Source: Polymyxa betae (taxonomy: Eukaryota; Endomyxa; Phytomyxea; Plasmodiophorida; Plasmodiophoridae). From it: a stretch of 61,339 bases of DNA. Below, piece after piece: positions 20,204 through 58,127 of the stretch. The stretch spans positions 1 to 61,339 of the forward strand of contig RBZT01000774.1 in the NCBI GenBank assembly GCA_003693705.1, in the 5' to 3' direction. The notes below the pieces were generated by a model. The model worked only from the letters and a program-made list of their open reading frames with translations. It was not told the DNA's origin and did no database searches. The position numbers and the translations under genes were made by a program. Position 1 is the stretch's first letter, and every line of letters begins with the position of its first letter.

Positions 20204-22445
20204 TCAGTCTGTGATAACTTGCAATTCAGTATCCTTTCTGCGAACGTTTCGATTACGAATCGATTCGATGTCATGCCGGTATTCTTTCAGGTTGCTTCCA
20301 CGAAGTACATTGCCAAAGGCGAAGATCACGATGTCATCGATAATGGGATTAGGAAGGTCCAACCGCTGCAGCGAAACAACGGCCCTGCAGATGCCTTCTC
20401 GTTCGCGCCTTAATCTCATCAAAGCGGTTCGTAACGTCGTCTCTGCACGACGCCCGACGTCCCGTCGCATCGTCTTGATTTGGACATGAAGCTCTTGCAA
20501 GCGAGGGCCAAGCCAGCCTCCACGCCAAAGAAGTTCTCGAGCCGTGTTGTCCCTTCCGTATTGCAGCGTTTCAAGCATGATGCTGAGGTTACTAGCAGCG
20601 GCCAGCACGGTCGCTGAGCTGTTCAGCAGCAGACGAACGAGTTCTTTGTGGCCCTGCGAAGCAGCATAGCGCAGAGCGTTGTTGTTGTTCGCCGCAAGAT
20701 CGATTCGTCCATCTTCCAGCAACAGACGAAACTTGCAGCACATCATTTTAGTTGGAAAAACATCTTCATATAGCGAGGCTTTTAACGATTCTTGCAGATA
20801 AATATTTTGAAAACATTAAACAATAAGAAAGAGTAATAAACGTACAATAAGAAAGAGTAATAAACGTACAATAAGAAAGAGTAATAAACGTATGAGAATA
20901 TGAGGCAAAGTTAGGTCTCAGACATTCTAAAACTTGATCAGAAAAAGGATTGAGAGTCTGATACGGAAACACAAAATGCAATAAAAAACACATTTTTCAG
21001 TAAATACCATGGCAAGATTGTTCGGCTTCAAAGCGGCGTTCAGGACAGCGTTATTTCTGGCAGCAGGATCAGCACCAGGAAGGGCCAACAAAGCTCGCAT
21101 GAGCGTCACATTCCCTGATTGTGCAGCCGATTTCAATGCTGCCGGAAGAGCAGCAGGAAGCTGACTCAGCATGGTTTCATCACCTGAATTCAAACTTGAG
21201 TTTCATGAATCAAATACAAAACCAAACGCCTCATATCGAAGAATTTGATTCTTTTTTGAAACGGGAATCGAAAGACGAATTCGAAAATAGAAAAAGTGCT
21301 TTGAGCTTACTATGTATTCTCGCAAGCATTAGTTTAGCGATCGTTTCATGGCCATGAACACAAGCTTGAATCAGGGCCTGGAAACCATCTGCGCTTGGAT
21401 CAACATCAGTCTGAACAAGCAGGACCCGAACGATGTCTGAATGACCAGCGATGCCCGCCAATGAGAGCAAAACGTCCATATAAACGGTAGCTCGAACCAT
21501 TGGCACCTGTTCGTAGTTGAGAATGAAGAAGCTTAAATTAAAGTAACAGAAACAATGAAAGCTCTTTAAACCAGACTTAGGTAACGCTGGCCGAAGTTTA
21601 GAATAGCCAAAGACAAAAGCGTAACAAGAGACGGGCAGGCGATGAGAAAACGGCTTCAATAATAATAATAAAGTTGTTAACGAAATCGAGAGAAATATGG
21701 AGAAGCTAAAGATATCGAAGAAGAAATCTTGAAAACGGAAATGACGGGAATCGAAAGAGCGTGCGTAACAAGAGACGTGCCAAATTACTTCATGGCGATG
21801 AGAAAACGGCTTCAATGATAATAATAACGATGTTAACGAAATCAAGAGAAGATATGGAGAAAAAAGATATTGAAGAAGAAATCTTGAAAACGGAAATGAC
21901 GGGAATCGAAAGAGCGCCGTAACAAGAGATGTGACAAATCACTTCATGGCGATGACAAAACGGCTTCATCGATAATAATAAATCGAAGAAGAAATCTTGA
22001 AAACGGAAATGAAGGGAATCGAAAGAGCGCCCTAAAGCCAGTATTGTGCTACCTTCAAAAGTAACAAAACAATGTTTGTATGCCCGTTAGCGCATGCCTC
22101 TCTAATCGCTTCATTATCACAGCTGATGGCATCAACGCTGCTATGCTGAAGCAGAACTTCCACGACGCCGACATGGCCGAAACTACAAGCGCCTCGAAGA
22201 GCAGCTTGCGGTCCATCTGCTGTCCAGAACGGAGCTGGCGACGACCCGGTCCAGCCCGCATCGACCCGAACTCGAGAGTCGGTTAGCAGCAAGAAGATAG
22301 TATCAAGATCGCCACAAACAGCAGCTTCAATAAATGCGTTGTTTAAGCGATCATTGTCGATGGTGGTGGCCGCGAAGGGAACCACCAACGGCAACGCCTC
22401 GACTTCCATCGACATTGTTTTACAACAGGCACGCGTTCGTGGCAC
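20204..22445 (-). CDS. ankyrin-repeat protein
   Basis: At least four minus-strand exons carry ankyrin repeats. About 22055-22445: FIEAAVCGDLDTIFLLL and ALRGACSFGHVGVVEVLL, then AIREACANGHTNIVLLLL. About 21310-21510: LAGIAGHSDIVRVLL and LIQACVHGHETIAKLML. About 20990-21180: ALKSAAQSGNVTLMRALL. About 20204-20746: ALRYAASQGHKELVRLLL. Each follows the ankyrin G-H-x3-[VL]-x2-LL pattern. After the repeats the protein has an Arg-rich helical tail and ends TELQVITD. Ankyrin stacks bind other proteins; no other domain hints at the partner. One intron contains a three-copy 155-bp tandem repeat and another a 24-bp repeat. Confidence 0.78.
20821..20892. repeat. 24-bp tandem repeat, 3 copies, in an ankyrin-gene intron
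   Basis: Three exact copies of CAATAAGAAAGAGTAATAAA plus CGTA lie between two ankyrin exons. Confidence 0.95.
21630..22035. repeat. about 155-bp tandem repeat, 3 copies, in an ankyrin-gene intron
   Basis: Copies begin near 21641, 21797 and 21951 with GATGAGAAAACGGCTTCA (GATGACAAAA in the third). They share ATCTTGAAAACGGAAATGA and GGAATCGAAAGAGCG. The third copy has a deletion. The block sits between ankyrin exons and is GAA-rich on this strand. Confidence 0.9.
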
Positions 22446-24954: not shown

Positions 24955-27624
24955 ATGGGCGCCGTATTCATCATCATCGCGATCATGATCGATCCATATC
25001 ATCCCGCCCTCAAGATCTGGTACATCATCGTCCTCCTCGCCTCCGTCTTCTCGGTCGTCTATACGCCCTTCGCCCTGATTCTCGGCAGTTTCTGGGACGA
25101 CGGCCAGCTGGTCGTACTGGACGCCGTCTTCGTCGCCTCCCTCGTCGTCAACTATCATACGAAAGTGCTGCGCGGCGACGGCCAGATCGTCACCGGCGAC
25201 TACACGCGCCGCCCGGAATTCACCGACGACCTGATCTGCGCCGTGCCGCTGGAGTGCGTGCGCGCCGTACTGGCCCGCGCCCTGCGGGGGCGCGGGCCGG
25301 TCATCGGCACCGGGCCTCACACGCTGACCGTGGCGCAGCCGGTTCTGATGCTGAACATCTTCCGGGCGCTGGCCTTCAACGATCGCCTGAATGCGTTCGC
25401 GAAGGTGACGACGATCGGGCCGCTGTTCTTCAACCATTGCAAACTGGGTAGGTCGTACTGGAGCCCAGGCTTGGCCGCGCCTTTTCATTTCGAATTCTGT
25501 TGCTTTTTTCACAAAACACTGTGCAGAGGTCGTTCGATTTGTTCAGCTTCCACAGAGTGGAATTTGCTAGAATTATTTCAAAAACTGCTGGAAAAGCTGA
25601 TTTTTTTCAAACGATTTTGATCTTGTAAAAAGGCTGATCCGATATTTTGAATAGTTGGGGTCCTGCTGCTATTGATCCACTGGCTGGGCGTCGGGATCGC
25701 CATCGTATGGTCTTTTCGGGTCGCCCATCCCTTATCGTACGTTACATCAAGTCGTACTGCCTCTTGTTCGAGATGCTCCATTTGTTGGACGGACACTCGT
25801 CGTCACCGCAATTCGATTTTTTTAGTTTTTTACCGTTGTTTCTTGACTGACAAAATCAAATCCCTTTGTATTTGTATTTTTTTTAGGTAGATTCTGTAAA
25901 AAAAATTCAAAATAGGTTCAAATTCAGTTTAAAAATAGTTATTTTCTGTGACAGAATATGGGTGGAAGCCGTCTATTGGTCAGTATCTACGATAATCCCG
26001 ATCGGGTATGGTAACATTACCGTATTTCGCCCCTACGTGATGGTGACCGCCTCTGCGATCATGCTCATCTCCGTTGTCTACTTCTACTATGTCATTTTAC
26101 AGATGGCCGACGACGTATTCCGCTTTAGTCGCGTTCGTGGCGCTTTCTCCAGAGCGTTAGAGGATATCACCGATTATCTCGAGTACGCTCTTTCCTTAAC
26201 AAAACTGTTTGCGAACGCTCACTTGTTTTTCAAGAACTCTGTTCCGAATGCAATTTTGCAATATTTACGGACGAAAAATAACATTTTTTTTTGAAAACAC
26301 CGTTTTTCAACATGTTGCCAGAAAATTTCTTTTTCGCATTTTCAAAACATAATTCACTGAATCGTTTTGGAGTTTTTTTCAAAGTTCAAGGAATCTGCGG
26401 GTCTTCAATCAACAGATTGTTTTCATCGCTCAGTTCAGCAAGCCCTAAACCCTAGCCCCCTAGGTCGCGTCATCTGCCCGTCGACCTGCACGCCGCCATC
26501 CTCTCTCTGTTTTACGCCAGCGAAACGACGTTCCGCGCGCTCAGCTATCACGAGCACGATCTTCTTAAAGACCTTCCCGTAGGCCTGCGACGGGAAATCG
26601 GCCTGCACGTTACCTCACCCCGCATTCCATGGGCCAGTACGTTCACACCTGATTGCAGATTCATCGCAACCTGCTGACGGTCGGCCACATGCCTGAGATG
26701 CGGATCGATAGCGAGCTCGTGGCGCAGCTCGCGACCGAAATCGACGGCGTCCGGTCGTACCTGCCCGGCGCCGTCCTGCTGCAACCCGGGCAGCTGCACG
26801 CCGGTCCCGTCTTCCTAGGAATCGTCGTGAAAGGCCTCGTACGTAAGCAACATCTGCCCGTTCTATGATATCTTTTTCAAAAAATTAAAAAAAAAAATTC
26901 TGGCGTTTTATAGTTTTTATTGACGTTTTTGGATTTTGATTTTGCTGCCTTCTTTTGGTTGTATTTTCGTTGCTGTCAACATTGCCCAGTTTCTTTTGGC
27001 CTCTGCTCTGTTGCAATGTTTTGAATTTTTTGTCGAAAAGTGCAAAAGATGCGTGTTTACACGTTTCACTTTTCCAAAAGTTCTTTTTTTCAATTTGGAT
27101 TTTTTCATCTTTTTAAAAAAATTTCTGTTTGCTATTGATACATCTGGTAGGTGGAGGCCACCAACCAGATCACGGGTCTCTCGCGGCTATTAACCGAAGG
27201 GTCCTATTTCGGAGGTCCGCCGCTCTTCCCGACCTCCGACGTTCTATTCCGAACTTTGACGTTCGCCGAGCTCTACCTGCTCGATTACAACCGCCTTATA
27301 ACGCCGCTACGCCGCGCCCCCAACATACATTCGCAGCTGACACAACTGTTGCGGCAGCGAATTCCGGAATCCGCTGCGGACCCGGACTTCCTGGCCAGTA
27401 CGGCCCTGAAAGATCCGCGATTTGAATCTTTCCAGAAGAGAGGGGATGTGGAGGATTTGGCGCCGATTCTGGCGGTCGCTAACAAATTGTCACGTGATGA
27501 TTTGGAGTCTGTGCTGGTCTTGGCTGAGTCGTTGGTGAAACGTAAGCAAGTCCGTGACGGAATTGCGCTCGCTGTTAACGACCTGCTGATGCGTCCAGCA
27601 GCTTCAGATCCAGACAGACAGTAA
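24955..27624 (+). CDS. cyclic-nucleotide-gated/HCN/EAG-type potassium channel
   Basis: Exon 1 (24955-25447) encodes S1-S4: IDPYHPALKIWYIIVLLAS for S1, DAVFVASLVVNYHTKVLRG for S2-S3, and LMLNIFRALAFNDRLNAF in the S4 position. Exon 2 (about 25660-25730) gives S5, LLLLIHWLGVGIAIVW. Exon 3 (about 25955-26200) holds the pore, VYWSVSTIIPIGYGN, with the K+ filter GYG, then S6 and the start of a C-linker. Later exons give LPVDLHAAILSLFYASE (C-linker), YLPGAVLLQPGQ (cNBD start) and EGSYFGG followed by FRTLTFAELYLLDYNRL (end of cNBD). The stop is at 27622-27624. S4 has only two arginines, and the cyclic-nucleotide cassette lacks its usual FGE glutamate. The channel is probably K+-selective, weakly voltage-sensitive and perhaps unable to bind cAMP/cGMP. 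An upstream exon is possible. Confidence 0.82.
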
Positions 27625-33772: not shown

Positions 33773-34795
33773 CTAAATCTGCAAAAGCTGTTTAAAGCTC
33801 ACAATGACATCTAAAAAAGTTAAACCCGGCGTCATCGCATTTCCCGTCAAGGCGCTGATGTAGTTCCAGTGATCGCCCCAGTCCCAGATCCCGGGGAATT
33901 CCGGGAGCGGATCCGGATCTCCGACATGAATCTCCGGACCGGCTTGTCTGTAGCCTGTAAATGAGGGCAGCGCCTTGCAGACGGGATCGCAGCGATTTTT
34001 AACGCGCCACAACAATCCCACATACTGATTGCATTGATTTGCGAACTCTTCGTTGCCGACCGGAGGCGACCCGATTGTCACGTTCCAGATCTTGTCTTGT
34101 TTGTATGTGCCGTAATTAAAGGCGGCGATGGTGCTGACGGCTGCTCCCAGACTGTGTCCAACAAACATGACGACGCCTCCTTTGTCCAGGAACTCGCCGA
34201 TCTTTTTTCCCCATTGCCCGATCAAGCTCTTGTACTGCCGTAGCCAGCCTTTGTGGACTCGGACTCCATCAAACCGATTACCATAGGTGTTATTGCCGAA
34301 CTCGACCTGCTCGATTTGGGCAGGTTGGAAAGCGTCAGCGATTTCATTGGTGTCACGAACAATCATCGCGAGGACTTTCTTCGCATATCCGGTCGGCTGA
34401 TACTCGCAGGCGAACGCCTGCAGTCCCGCTCGACGATCGTCCAGAATATCCGGCTCATCGAGTCGTTGGAGAACGTCGTATTCTTCCGGGACGGGTCCGG
34501 TTCTGGGGCCAGTATGATAGCTCTCCCAACGTTGTTGGAGATCAACGCCTTCCTTGTAGGCCAGCACGGCCATTTTGGCCGCATCGAGGAGCAGGCTTTT
34601 ATCGTTGTCTGTGAACAGGCCTGGGTATGACACAGCGGACGTGATTCGCGTAAACATTATCACAGCGAAGCGAAATTGAACTTTGCATGAATCGGAAACA
34701 TTGTGTGGAAGGTGAAGTTCAGAATAACGAATGGCTGGAAACCCTAACAACGGACGCAGCAGGCGCATTTTATGCGCTCGCGAATCGACCTTCAA
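33773..34795 (-). CDS. class 3 (alpha/beta-hydrolase) lipase
   Basis: A single open exon of up to 340 residues. VVMFVGHSLGAAVSTIAAFN is the nucleophile elbow G-H-S-L-G of Lipase_3 enzymes. WNVTIGSPPVGNEEFANQC is the following strand and helix with the G-x-P-x-x-G-N signature. RVKNRCDPVC supplies the likely acid region, and GDHWNYI near the end a likely catalytic His. The catalytic core starts around MFTRITSAVSYPGLF. The upstream 45 residues include MRLLRPLLGFPAIRY, which might be a weak signal peptide, so the true start is uncertain. It would cleave acyl esters of lipids, probably outside the cell or in a lipid compartment. Confidence 0.85.
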   Translation of the reverse strand: MKVDSRAHKMRLLRPLLGFPAIRYSELHLPHNVSDSCKVQFRFAVIMFTRITSAVSYPGLFTDNDKSLLLDAAKMAVLAYKEGVDLQQRWESYHTGPRTGPVPEEYDVLQRLDEPDILDDRRAGLQAFACEYQPTGYAKKVLAMIVRDTNEIADAFQPAQIEQVEFGNNTYGNRFDGVRVHKGWLRQYKSLIGQWGKKIGEFLDKGGVVMFVGHSLGAAVSTIAAFNYGTYKQDKIWNVTIGSPPVGNEEFANQCNQYVGLLWRVKNRCDPVCKALPSFTGYRQAGPEIHVGDPDPLPEFPGIWDWGDHWNYISALTGNAMTPGLTFLDVIVSFKQLLQI

Positions 34796-35772
34796 GTTAC
34801 GTTACAGTGTCTTCCGAATACAGATTATTGCCGCCCTGGAAGACGATTGCTTTCATCGTCCACTAACCTCAGCCGGATCTAATTGTTTTTGAGCAGCAGA
34901 ATCTGCATTCCTTGTGACTCGGATATTGGAAACAGGTCGTTCTGCATTAACGAGATTGGCCGTCTGACACTCGAAGTGAAAGGCAGATTTCATCAATGTA
35001 ATCGCAAATATGCCTTCGTAAGATGATACCAACATACCATTGCTCTTTTATAACTTGAATATCTTCCTCTAGTATGATCTTCTCCTCGGCTGGTGAGTCT
35101 TATATTTAATTGATCAAAAATTTCAGGGTTATCAAGTTGGTCCGATTCTTTTTCGGCTTCAGAGGTGTTGATCGTCTGGAGATTTAATCAGACATGGTCG
35201 TTCTCGTTCGATCATTCTATGAATTTCAGCTCCTGTTCGCACAATCGTTTCTCATATTTGCATTCACAAGCTGCCTTTTTCGCGTTTGGTAACATCTCAA
35301 GACATCTTCGCACACAGTTCATATCATTGGTACGGTTCTTTCCGTGTCCTGCCCCTTCTTTCATCCTGGTCGTGTAGCACAAAACGTTGCATCTCAAGCT
35401 GTCGTCTCTGCTCAATCTCTGTTCTAGCTTTGCCAGATACCTATTCGGTTCTAATTCTTCAATCTCGCTTCTTTTATCTATTGTTCTGTTACGATCCACG
35501 TCGCTGTATGTCTGACTATTTTCGTGCTTCTATTATCATCTTTGTATGACGATTTTGCCAGCTGAATATCGCTTCGTGTTGGGCAGTGATATACTGGTGA
35601 ATGGATATGTGCGTGGCTCCCTCTCTTCTTGGCCAACCCCATAAAAAAGTCGTCGACCTCATGGAACCCCTTCAGGACGCCTCTGCGACCGACTCCTCTG
35701 CTTTTACATTACGGGTTACAAGACAAACTCTCATGACGAATCCAACCATGAAAATCGAGAAAAAAAATAAGT
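34796..35772 (-). other. no confident gene; possible Cys-rich exon at 35212-35499
   Basis: A minus-strand frame of 95 codons at 35212-35499 contains EELEPNRYLAKLEQRL and several cysteines (C-x3-C twice, then C-x-C), but there is no signal peptide and no splice evidence. The rest is not coding-like. Confidence 0.25.
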
Positions 35773-35843
35773 TCCGATACGGGGACTCGAACCCCGGTCT
35801 TCAATGTGAAAGACTGATATACTGACCCCTGTACTATATCGGA
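35773..35843 (-). tRNA. tRNA-Glu (anticodon UUC)
   Basis: The minus strand folds as a 71-nt cloverleaf without intron. Acceptor stem TCCGATA pairs with TATCGGA. D stem GTAC pairs with GTAT. Anticodon stem TCAGT pairs with ATTGA around loop CTTTCAC, so the anticodon is TTC. T stem CGGGG pairs with CCCCG around TTCGAGT. No CCA is encoded. Internal promoter boxes fall in the D and T arms. Confidence 0.93.
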
Positions 35844-35875: not shown

Positions 35876-35936
35876 NNNNNNNNNNNNNNNNNNNNNNNNN
35901 NNNNNNNNNNNNNNNNNNNNNNNNNNNNNNNNNNNN
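35876..35936. other. assembly gap (N)
   Basis: A run of 61 N between the tRNA-Glu gene and the left end of the alpha-kinase element. Confidence 1.
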
Positions 35937-36007
35937 AAACCCTCTCCCGTCTAACAGTGGTGACAAATGTGCGCGACCATTCATCAGATTTGTTGAAGCC
36001 CCGAAAC

Positions 36008-36098
36008 TAGGGAATGCGAGAACCGCCATATTGCGACACGCATTAGTTTTTTTTGCGTGTCACTTAATTTTTTTTCGTCTGATTATCTCGTCGTCGTT
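36008..36098 (+). repeat. left terminal inverted repeat
   Basis: 91 bp, inverse of 38636-38728, including GACACGCATT, a T run, GCGTGTCACTTAATT, a second T run and TTATCTCGTCGTCGTT. Confidence 0.93.
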
Positions 36099-36203
36099 AT
36101 GGTGATTTCGTCGTCGTAGTAGACCCTACAGGAGGCTATTTTGCTCGCGCCGCTCTTTACCCCGCACCTTATCAAGTCTTATCGTTTCGGGGTCAACACT
36201 GCG

Positions 36204-38111
36204 ATGTTCTGTCCACGATCTGGGAAGCCGGACGGGCAGTGTGGGACCGATTGCCCCTCCAGCCAATCTTTGATCCAGCAGACGATCAAAGAACAGCTGA
36301 TACAACTGGCTGGTTCCAAGATCGTTGCAGAAAAACGCCGACGTTTCGGACGCCCTGCTACGACGATCAATCCAGCTCTGTCCAAAATTCACGTCACCGC
36401 ATTCCCAGCGGGTATGCATCCTGTTGACCTTAAACCGATGAAACTTCCTAGAGGAGCCCCTGTTAATGTTGTCTTTATGCTCGACTCGTCATATGATACA
36501 GTAGTGACAGGCCTACAAGAATTGCTGTTTCCATACCCAAAATATAAGATTGCTGATTATTCGCTTGCAGCTGCTGACGGTGCTTTAATCGTCGAAGGGA
36601 TTCCTTTTGCCGAGTTTCCTTTTAACCTTGGCAAGGGCGGCAAGAAAAGTTTATGGCTTGTCTGGCAAGAGAGAGACGAATCTGCATCAGATAATCATTA
36701 TTTATCAGAAAATGACTTTAATGATGTCACAAGAACTGACGTCGACGCTGGTACTACAGAGGGAAACACTATCACCAACCTTCTTCCAATTACGCAATCA
36801 AGTAACGGGAACGAATTCTCATTTTCGCTTTTATCATGCCCAGCATTCGGTGATACGACTTCTCTAAAATTCGAGGAAACTTATGATCTGGCAAAAGCAG
36901 ATGTGGCGGTCACTCATCAATCAGTGGCGATACTCCGCCGAATTGATCCGGTTGCTAAGCAATGGACCGAATGTTTTCTGAAAGGCTTTGATGTTCCAAA
37001 TATGGAGGATCCGATAACTGATGGACAATTCAAAACTGTTTACAGAAATGCATTGTTTCCTTATGTTTTCAAGCAATCCTCTGTGGTTTTCAAAGTCGCA
37101 ACGGATTCTTAAGATGATCGATTGGTTTCAAATTGCAGGGCCGTCCAAATGGCTGCACTCTGCAGCGCTGCTTCCGAGGAATTCAATTCCAATCTTCCCA
37201 AGATTACCACATTTCATTCTGCGAGTGTGTAATTGTTGAGCTTCCTGAAACGATCGACATTCTCCATTCGACTAGCTCACAGCTCAGCATGATGGCGCGG
37301 AAAGGTTTGATATGGCTGGTGGAGAATCAGATTAAAAGCCGACGCTTCGACAAATATGTTGGAAATACCGGAGAAATCGTCCCCATCGAGTTGTGCACAG
37401 GGGAACGCATGAAAAAAGACCGCTTGTTAGCCACTGCATTTACTCATTGGACGTATGTTCGATCTAATCAGAAATGCATGGTCTTAGATTTGCCAGGAGG
37501 AGGGGGTCAGTTCACTGATGTGGAAATTGTAACAGTTGAGGAGCCTGACACCAGCTTCGAATGCGGCAACCTGGGGGCCTCATCGATTACGAAATTCTTT
37601 CAACAGCATCAATGCAAGCTGATCTGCCAACTACTGAGTATCTCGTCAAACCGGCCATTAGTGCCCATATCACTTTTTTCGGATCAAAACCCTAACCCTA
37701 ACGATTGTGGCAGCGAAGATTTACGCGATTTGCCAGCGTTTATCCCAACCCCGACAATGTTCTGAGGAGGAGGATTCACTCTCAAAGGGCAATGAATCTG
37801 AGAGCGATGAAATTGACGCCGCAAACGATATCATGAAACCAGGCCAGCCAGACGGACCGCCTGGTGTCACAGTTGACATTGCTGCCAGTTTGAAACCCAA
37901 TATTCAGGATCAGTCATCCTCACTTAAACGCAAACGTAAACGCTGTGAGCCACTCGTTACGATAAAGCGCAAAGACCACACACTTAACAATCAATTGTCG
38001 ACGCGCCGTAAACCTGCGATGGCTAGAGACGCACGCAAGGATCAAATAGAAAAACAAAGTTTAATAACAAAAAACCTTAACAATATCAATAAACGTCAAT
38101 TTGAATCTTGA
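36204..38111 (+). CDS. alpha-kinase (atypical protein kinase) inside a TIR element
   Basis: Exon 1 starts at ATG 36204 with a cysteine-bearing N-terminus (MFCPRSGKPDGQCGTDC) and runs to about 37090. Exon 2 runs from about 37136 to 37630. Alpha-kinase hallmarks are in order: ENQIKSRRFDKYVGNTG (the E-x-Y-I-x-G-x-F-x-K-Y-x-N-N-G region), ATAFTHWTYVRSNQKCMVLD (usual a-F-x-H-F-[TS]-Y-x-x-S-x-x-x-x-[LM]-V-x-D), QFTDVEI (usual LTDPQI), CGNLGASSITKFFQQHQC and KLIC, the Zn-binding H-x-C-x3-C end. An intron with GTATCT donor, containing CCCTAACCCTAA, leads to a C-terminal tail with acidic (EEEDS, NESESDE) and basic (LKRKRKRC, a likely NLS) stretches and a stop at 38111. If the intron is retained, translation ends at 37765. 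The N-terminal 230 residues are not recognised. Reading frames are open, so it may be active. Confidence 0.78.
37688..37702 (+). repeat. telomere-like tract AACCCTAACCCTAAC in an intron
   Basis: It lies in the last alpha-kinase intron just before the TGTGGCAG acceptor. CTAAC also fits a branch-point consensus, so the tract may serve splicing. Confidence 0.8.
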
Positions 38112-38358
38112 AATTCTCAAGATTGCATGCATAACAATATTTACAGGTCGATCATGAGTGGCTGCAAGGCATCACGATGTTCACGTAAATGTAAATATGC
38201 ATGAGCCATATTTTCCATTGTTGGTGGAAACAGACCGACGACTGTGAGAGCAGCTGTAAAACCGGACGGTCGCGATCCGTATTCAAAAGATTGCCAAGAT
38301 CAATCATTGCAGATGATAAACAATGTCCTTTAAAGGAACGTTGCGCTTGATAAGATTT

Positions 38359-38565
38359 CTAACGTCGCTGATCCAATTCAGAGCTTCTCTCAAAAGCCGA
38401 ACAATAAATTGGTCGATCAAATCCATGAATTTTTATCCATCGCTGTAGGGTTCGGATAGAGATATCTGTGTTATAGTGTAGTCTAAGGCTTTCCACGATC
38501 TCTTCGTAGCTCTGACCAGCTTCAAGTTGATGCTGGACGAAGCCAAGGAGCTGCTGTGTCGGCAT
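38359..38565 (-). CDS. helix-turn-helix ORF near the right TIR
   Basis: A 68-residue ORF that starts 70 bp inside the right TIR and is read leftward. GQSYEEIVESLRLHYNTDIS then IRTLQRWIKIHGF is a transposase-type HTH (x-S-x-E-I-x3-L ... I-S-x-R-T-L-x-R). This is the N-terminal DNA-binding module seen in IS3EU-type integrase-fold transposases. No catalytic domain follows in frame. It is either a decayed transposase 5' end or a stand-alone DNA-binding protein that recognises the TIR. Confidence 0.5.
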   Translation of the reverse strand: MPTQQLLGFVQHQLEAGQSYEEIVESLRLHYNTDISIRTLQRWIKIHGFDRPIYCSAFERSSELDQRR

Positions 38566-38635
38566 TGAGAGCTAAGGGGCAGATGGCGTCTCCCGGGACG
38601 GCGAGATATTCAGATGCAAGTGTATCGCTAAGCAC

Positions 38636-38728
38636 AACGACGACGAGATAACCAGACGAAAAAAAATTAAGTGACACGCAAAAAAAAAAACAATGCGTGT
38701 CGCAATATGGCGGTTCTCGCATTCCGTA
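38636..38728 (-). repeat. right terminal inverted repeat
   Basis: 93 bp, inverse of 36008-36098. Differences are mainly in the length of one T run. Followed directly by the target duplication CGAAAC (38729-38734). Confidence 0.93.
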
Positions 38729-38734
38729 CGAAAC

Positions 38735-57692: not shown

Positions 57693-58055
57693 ATCTCATA
57701 ATGTAACAACGTTTTTTTACAAATTGTAACGAATCACCATCTTTGCCTAAACTTTCAGGCGTTTCTCCCCGTTGTTAGGCTGATTTCAATACATTGTCAT
57801 TAGAACCAGCTCCAATATTAAAACTGACTCATTATACAATGTTTTGTATATGGATTTATATCTAAAACGGATTAAGACTGTCAGGTTTAAAAAACTCGTT
57901 CAAATCGCTAATCTGGCATTCAAGCTGCGAATTTACGTATTCCGGTCCAAAACGAATGTGAACAACAACGAATCTCGTACTAGCCTGTGCTGCTCTAGAC
58001 AACAACAAGACAAAATTCAGAAAGAGATAGCGACAATCCGAATGCCAAAAAGAAT
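57693..58055. other. intergenic between SLY1 and tRNA-Met
   Basis: Nothing recognised. Confidence 0.5.
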
Positions 58056-58127
58056 CGCTCGGCCAAGCTTCGATCTTGGGACTTCTGGGTTATGGGCCCA
58101 GCACGCTGCCAACTGCGTCACCAAGCG
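58056..58127 (-). tRNA. initiator tRNA-Met (CAU)
   Basis: The minus strand gives a 72-nt cloverleaf: acceptor CGCTTGG with CCGAGCG, D stem ACGC with GCGT, anticodon stem CTGGG with CCCAG around CCCATAA, T stem CCAAG with CTTGG around ATCGAAG. Three G:C pairs at the base of the anticodon stem and A54 in the T loop (ATCG in place of TTCG) are marks of a eukaryotic initiator. The first pair is C1:G72, where eukaryotic initiators normally have A1:U72. No intron, no encoded CCA. Confidence 0.88.

What the first reader, a model, noticed from the sequence alone, without database searches (positions are those of the whole stretch)
36002..38734. A DNA element with 90-bp TIRs and a 6-bp target duplication carries an alpha-kinase gene
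Both TIRs and the flanking CGAAAC duplication are visible, so the borders are exact. Inside is an open, spliced alpha-kinase with all C-lobe hallmarks and a likely NLS, plus a short transposase-type HTH ORF next to the right TIR. Alpha-kinases are not normal transposon cargo. Either a host kinase was captured, or the kinase is part of the element's own biology, for example acting on a transposase supplied in trans.
Basis: partly seen in the sequence, partly recalled or inferred. Interest (0 to 1): 0.88.

Follow-up and report, generated by a model that had tools for sequence, protein, structure and literature searches.

The report
Decayed transposon carrying a kinase gene
This is a worn-out copy of a jumping gene of a known group (IS3EU) that carries, besides the stump of its own jumping enzyme, an unusual protein-kinase gene; the pairing has been briefly reported in rust fungi, and here it appears without the third gene seen there.

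Summary
The element is real: window 36008-38728 has ~94-bp TIRs and a CGAAAC duplication and belongs to a dispersed family; 9 of 10 copies with both ends read have a perfect 6-bp duplication. TA..TA ends, 6-bp TSDs, long TIRs and a kinase gene antiparallel to an HTH gene match IS3EU transposons. A 2025 paper states that all TET+ IS3EU families carry an alpha-kinase gene opposite the transposase, so the kinase is a published IS3EU gene, not odd cargo.

Corrections: the kinase is not 'open, spliced'; the supposed intron is coding sequence with a premature stop and a frameshift. The HTH is read as the N-terminus of a transposase whose core is missing. The window copy is decayed and non-autonomous. 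All three loci over the Pfam alpha-kinase cut-off lie in such elements; a weaker relic also sits beside the HTH. Kinase pieces of two subfamilies show pN far below pS. No intact transposase was found; the host is unidentified and the kinase's job unknown. I infer a nuclear role on the transposase or host factors.

The parts
36002..36007 (.). [quoted passage not shown]
   Evidence: sequence; identical to 38729-38734; same length in 9 of 10 copies with both ends read
36008..36101 (+). Left TIR (begins TAGGG)
   Evidence: found at other loci
36204..37109 (+). Broken kinase gene, N-terminal piece: Cys-rich motif with helix, conserved element-specific region, start of kinase N-lobe
   Evidence: open frame; relatives P0001-P0007 and P0009 and the C44 copy; P0008 looks like a chimaera
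37110..37193 (+).
37190..37762 (+). Broken kinase gene, catalytic C-lobe piece (PF02816) with a His/Cys pattern like the zinc site of solved alpha-kinases
37770..38111 (+). Acidic linker and basic NLS-like tail of the kinase, in a different frame from the C-lobe piece; continuous with the C-lobe end in the C44 copy
38144..38260 (-). Remnant of a second minus-strand coding segment shared with C44, read as the transposase C-terminus
   Evidence: score 101 against C44, maximum 45 in 50 shuffles; its assignment to the transposase is inference
38307..38405 (-). Remnant of the second HTH of the transposase N-terminus
38362..38565 (-). First HTH of the transposase N-terminus (the short HTH ORF)
   Evidence: model of the related double-HTH protein P0010, mean pLDDT 82
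38633..38728 (-). Right TIR (its reverse complement begins TACGG)
38729..38734 (.). [quoted passage not shown]

Best explanation
A decayed, non-autonomous copy of an IS3EU-type DDE transposon in a eukaryotic, probably fungal host (host group inferred). The ancestral element carried two genes running inward from the two ends: a transposase with a double-HTH DNA-binding N-terminus and an integrase-fold core, and a kinase made of a Cys-rich N-terminus, an element-specific region, an alpha-kinase domain, an acidic linker and a basic NLS-like tail. Shown: borders, TSDs, dispersed family, antiparallel layout, absence of a transposase core in the element, broken kinase frame, pN far below pS between kinase pieces of two subfamilies. 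Inferred: that the HTH belonged to an IS3EU-type transposase with such a core; mobilisation in trans by a transposase from intact relatives; nuclear location of the kinase; phosphorylation of the transposase or of host chromatin/repair factors that favours or regulates transposition. The kinase is an inherited gene of the element, not a recent capture.
For: Family with 6-bp TSDs in 9 of 10 copies with both ends read, copies located. TA..TA ends and usually 6-bp TSDs are the reported IS3EU traits (PMC10045372, passages); rust TET+ IS3EU have 6-bp TSDs, TIRs over 30 bp and TAYGG..CCRTA ends, and all TET+ IS3EU have antiparallel transposase and alpha-kinase (PMC12730594, passages and section 4.1). 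The C44 element (G000:C44:8983-11995, TSD TTTCCG) repeats the layout at about 45% kinase identity. 3 of 3 alpha-kinase loci over the Pfam cut-off lie in such elements. Kinase pieces, window versus C44: pS 0.83 (saturated), pN 0.35 over 472 codon pairs. HTH relatives and double-HTH model. A basic tail also ends the C44 kinase. Mobilisation in trans is published for Styx, an IS3EU relative (PMC10853768, passages).
Against: The catalytic core was not found, so placement in IS3EU rests on termini, TSD, TIR and layout. PF24764 gave 0 hits and no control genome rang either; PF00665 gave 123 hits (150 of 154 candidates scored), none within the element spans, the nearest on shared contigs (C175, C333, C69) being kilobases away. 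The HTH is not over the cut-off of any Pfam model in the tables I saw. The window's left end is TAGGG, not TAYGG. One of ten copies (second C512) lacks a matching TSD, and a composite copy at C488 lacks one too. In the relic at C69 kinase and HTH pieces lie on the same strand and no TIR was seen. The Styx paper lists no kinase among the element's four genes, so the kinase is not universal in IS3EU-like elements. Recent copies show weak codon bias: p<0.05 in 4 of 10 pairs for the N-terminal piece, 1 of 3 for the C-lobe piece, 0 of 5 tested for the HTH.
Confidence: 0.8

Rival explanations
1. A host alpha-kinase gene was captured by a transposon in this lineage and is carried as passive cargo.
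For: Transfer of genes between fungal DNA transposons is documented for TET/JBP genes (PMC12730594, passages); the copies here are decaying.
Against: No alpha-kinase outside such elements was detected; the same kinase-HTH layout exists in two subfamilies with only about 45% kinase identity and pN far below pS; TET+ IS3EU families are reported to carry an alpha-kinase.
Confidence: 0.1
2. The kinase open frame is a working, spliced gene now used by the host (domestication).
For: Long open pieces; His, Asp and His-Cys-Cys positions line up with solved alpha-kinases.
Against: The supposed intron is coding in relatives; premature stop, frameshift and tail out of frame with the C-lobe; Pro in place of Gln next to the aligned Asp (the residue's role is recalled); window versus C175 gives dN/dS near 0.5 (rough) and no significant codon-position bias.
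Confidence: 0.05
3. The element belongs to another superfamily that also makes 6-bp TSDs, such as a GingerRoot-like lineage or an undescribed one.
For: The catalytic core is missing, and IS3EU and GingerRoot are treated together and not separated in the published tree (PMC10045372, passages).
Against: TA..TA ends, long TIRs, 6-bp TSDs and an antiparallel alpha-kinase together match the published description of TET+ IS3EU.
Confidence: 0.1

Closest known systems
TET+ IS3EU transposons of Pucciniales, Kojima 2025 (PMC12730594; passages and section 4.1 seen; the paper also names one TET+ IS3EU family from Tuber indicum)
   Same: 6-bp TSD, TIR longer than 30 bp, TA..TA termini with GG following, alpha-kinase gene antiparallel to the transposase
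   Different: No TET/JBP gene between the two; one end TAG instead of TAY; transposase core missing; kinase broken; host unidentified, not shown to be a rust
Styx, an IS3EU-related element of Zymoseptoria (PMC10853768; passages seen)
   Same: 6-bp TSDs, TIRs, extra genes beside the transposase; degenerate copies can be mobilised in trans
   Different: The paper lists a transposase, genes with GATA and CCHC motifs and a DUF3577 gene, and no kinase
Alpha-kinase families of rusts (PF02816; PMC4469406, PMC4150398, PMC5295586; passages seen)
   Same: Same Pfam family
   Different: In the passages seen they are treated as gene families of the genome; a relation to IS3EU is not mentioned there

Membership tests
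IS3EU superfamily | 6-bp target site duplication (reported as usual) | tested here: met
   9 of 10 copies with both ends read, window included; the composite C488 copy does not
IS3EU superfamily | TA..TA termini | tested here: met
   window TAGGG...CCGTA; 10 of 10 copies with both ends read begin and end in TA
IS3EU superfamily | DDD/E transposase of IS3EU type | tested here: inconclusive
   only HTH1, part of HTH2 and a supposed C-terminal remnant survive; no core inside the elements by PF24764 (no control rang) or PF00665
TET+ IS3EU of rusts | termini TAYGG..CCRTA | tested here: inconclusive
   met at one end of the window (TACGG); the other end is TAGGG; the other copies likewise have TACGG at one end and TAG, TAA or TAT at the other
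TET+ IS3EU of rusts | TIR longer than 30 bp | tested here: met
   about 94 bp in the window; in the diverged C44 copy a 29-nt arm at 86% was reported
TET+ IS3EU of rusts | alpha-kinase gene antiparallel to the transposase gene | tested here: met
   window, C175 and C44, taking the HTH as transposase; not so in the TIR-less relic C69
TET+ IS3EU of rusts | TET/JBP gene between them | tested here: not met
   kinase tail frame ends at 38111 and the transposase remnant starts at 38144, leaving no room; not a member of the TET+ subset. No TET/JBP profile was run
Alpha-kinase family PF02816 | profile match over the gathering score | tested here: met
   93.6 bits against 21.3
Alpha-kinase family PF02816 | working enzyme (intact frame, conserved active-site residues) | tested here: not met
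   stop and frameshift; DLQG of 1ia9 is DLPG here

The most novel reading that the evidence does not exclude
An alpha-kinase is an ancient, selected second gene of IS3EU transposons across fungi, acting in the nucleus on the transposase or on host silencing/repair. It can outlast the transposase core inside non-autonomous copies, so many 'expanded' fungal alpha-kinase families are really transposon genes.
Probability: 0.45. Interest if true: 0.65.

Novelty: new member of a known kind. Interest (0 to 1): 0.42.

Why it matters
It extends a pairing mentioned in two sentences of one paper to a genome where the element has no TET gene and where all three loci over the Pfam alpha-kinase cut-off lie in this transposon family. 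That makes a plain hypothesis testable: a DNA transposon that brings its own protein kinase. It also warns that alpha-kinase expansions reported in fungal genomes may be transposon genes rather than host signalling genes.

Tried and rejected
Intron hypothesis: rejected. Search for the transposase core: PF24764 gave nothing and no control rang; PF00665 gave 123 hits, none within the element spans. A minus-strand segment in the middle of the C44 element looked like transposase but recurs at C30 and C345 in another setting; treated as an unrelated repeat. Host identity: an RPB2 exon scores 307.8 bits against yeast-type chains, 304.3 against the next yeast-type chain and 302.4-303.8 against a group of chains that I take to be mammalian (organisms mostly recalled); the gap is small, so a eukaryote, perhaps an opisthokont, and no more. 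I considered a chytrid because of the genome size, looked at one listing and at passages of PMC6572847, and could not test it. A structure model of the kinase N-terminal piece was useless (pLDDT 37). No paralogous empty site. In one search some window-C175 blocks may overlap or be out of register (one at 68% identity), so dN/dS near 0.5 is rough; the window-C44 figure also includes short blocks of low identity. Paper searches for the kinase-transposon link were in an open-licence library; one search found none, searches listed 25 of 40 and 10 of 11. Among the papers whose text I opened only PMC12730594 states the link; the rest I saw as listings. I also saw a passage of PMC8955403 on IS3EU in Ganoderma; it does not bear on the kinase.

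Full report
What is there. Window 36008-38728 has TIRs of about 94 bp (93 of 97 aligned bases identical) and is flanked by CGAAAC on both sides. In 2000 random pairs of 100-mers from the window the best inverted match scored 27, against 82 observed.

It is a family. The element finds related DNA at C175, C492, C29, C488, C57 and C333, and more weakly at C180 and C169; the left TIR alone finds 9 matches on 5 contigs, the window's own included. Searches with a diverged copy at C44 and with the C180 copy add C176, C509, C215, C87, C512 and others. Ten copies had both ends of one subfamily readable in what I held: 9 of 10 have a perfect 6-bp TSD (window CGAAAC, C175 GTAGGG, C492 CGTCAC, C44 TTTCCG, C180 GCGTTG, C169 CAATTC, C176 CGTGAG, C509 CTTTGT, first C512 CTGCTC) and the second C512 copy does not. 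Not counted: C29, C57 and C87, with one end only; C215, whose far end was not held; C333, with no end recognised; C488, a composite whose two ends are of different subfamilies and whose flanks do not match; and weaker loci that I did not read for their ends, such as C251, C64, C30 and C345.

The kinase. The C-terminal piece at 37118-37762 matches PF02816 at 93.6 bits. By sequence it aligns with 1ia9 (TRPM7, name recalled), myosin heavy chain kinase A and eEF2 kinase, keeping an H...D...H-C-C pattern but with DLPG where 1ia9 has DLQG (the role of these residues is recalled). The N-terminal piece matches no Pfam family. Its homologues among 5.8 billion proteins are unnamed fragments of 116-262 residues only, probably metagenomic: 3 in the first search and 9 with the profile, of which P0008 looks like a chimaera with a ferredoxin-like protein. 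In the C44 copy the end of the C-lobe continues in one frame into a polar, acidic linker and a basic tail; the window has a similar tail, not in the frame of its C-lobe piece.

The kinase is broken, not spliced. In the window the N-terminal frame meets TAA at 37110-37112. The copies at C175, C492, C29 and C488 have a sense codon there (4 of the 4 that cover it; C333 and C57 do not). The in-frame sequence after the stop is homologous to P0003, which is continuous through this point, and to the C44 copy (scores 109 and 46 against maxima of 37 and 35 in 500 shuffles each). A frameshift then moves the gene into the frame of the C-lobe piece. The C44 and C175 copies are also interrupted.

The HTH is what is left of a transposase (inference). 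The window ORF has relatives at many loci: 15 matches to E 1 with the window ORF, 24 with the longer relative P0010. Four of the six database relatives (P0010-P0013) carry two HTH units, modelled as two three-helix units with mean pLDDT 82 and pTM 0.60. In both the window and C44 the minus strand holds HTH1, part or all of HTH2 and a further conserved segment (score 101 against a maximum of 45 in 50 shuffles), which I read as the transposase C-terminus; I saw nothing between them that resembles an integrase core. No core was found inside the elements by profile, but PF24764 had no positive control. Pfam does not place the HTH above cut-off in the tables I saw.

Whose gene is the kinase? The Pfam search found four matches at three loci (window, C175, C44), all inside these elements. 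A protein search added fragments in family members (C333, C492, C29) and a weak relic at C69 (E 0.005) that sits beside an HTH relic, on the same strand and without TIRs. No other alpha-kinase was detected, with the limit that the search scores only the best candidates and reads exon by exon. Between window and C44 kinase pieces (472 codon pairs) pS is 0.83 and pN 0.35: the protein was conserved while silent sites saturated. Between window and C175 dN/dS is near 0.5 (rough), and codon-position bias among recent copies is weak (p<0.05 in 4 of 10 pairs for the N-terminal piece, 1 of 3 for the C-lobe piece, 0 of 5 tested for the HTH), as expected of decaying copies.

Comparison with what is known. 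Complete IS3EU families have TA..TA termini and usually 6-bp TSDs (PMC10045372, passages). In Kojima 2025 (PMC12730594; [quoted passage not shown] The window element fits except that the TET gene is absent, one end is TAG, and the transposase core is gone. The related Styx element is listed with four genes, none a kinase, and shows mobilisation of degenerate copies in trans (PMC10853768, passages). Rust papers list alpha-kinases as an expanded, enriched or selected family (PMC4469406, PMC4150398, PMC5295586; passages). Searches for the kinase-transposon link turned up one paper that states it among those I opened, PMC12730594.

Mechanism. The best reading is a two-gene IS3EU element whose copies here lost the transposase core and could have moved only with transposase supplied in trans. 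The kinase has an NLS-like tail, and its natural substrates would be the transposase or host nuclear proteins; this step is inference with no direct evidence. Retention of a recognisable kinase beside a missing transposase core in both the window type and the C44 type is suggestive, but two lineages are too few to conclude from.

Verdict.

Noticed in passing
L012 (G000:C488:3715-5341): Composite element: left end of the C180 subfamily, right end of the window subfamily, flanks not duplicated; perhaps two adjacent insertions fused.
   Followed up: partly
G000:C492, C29, C333: Three copies share sequence at what looks like the same internal deletion joint, which removes much of the kinase C-lobe, so a short non-autonomous derivative itself may have spread.
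   Followed up: partly
L029:5726-6078 with L067 and L068 (C345, C30): A few hundred bases inside the C44 element recur at C345 and C30; looks like part of another repeat placed within the transposon.
   Followed up: partly
L057 (G000:C69 about 25300-26120): TIR-less relic with kinase and HTH pieces on the same strand, unlike window, C175 and C44.
   Followed up: partly
window 35771-35843 and the N run at about 35876-35936: A tRNA-Glu gene lies about 160 bp from the insertion, next to a masked stretch; tRNA-Ala at 1405-1478 and tRNA-Met at 58055-58127.
   Followed up: no
L050 (C512) and window 20207-20815: Several similar ORFs side by side in L050, two of which were scanned and carry a BTB domain, and an ankyrin-type ORF in the window.
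   Followed up: no
window 33776-34801, minus strand: Open reading frame with a class 3 lipase domain (68.1 bits).
   Followed up: no
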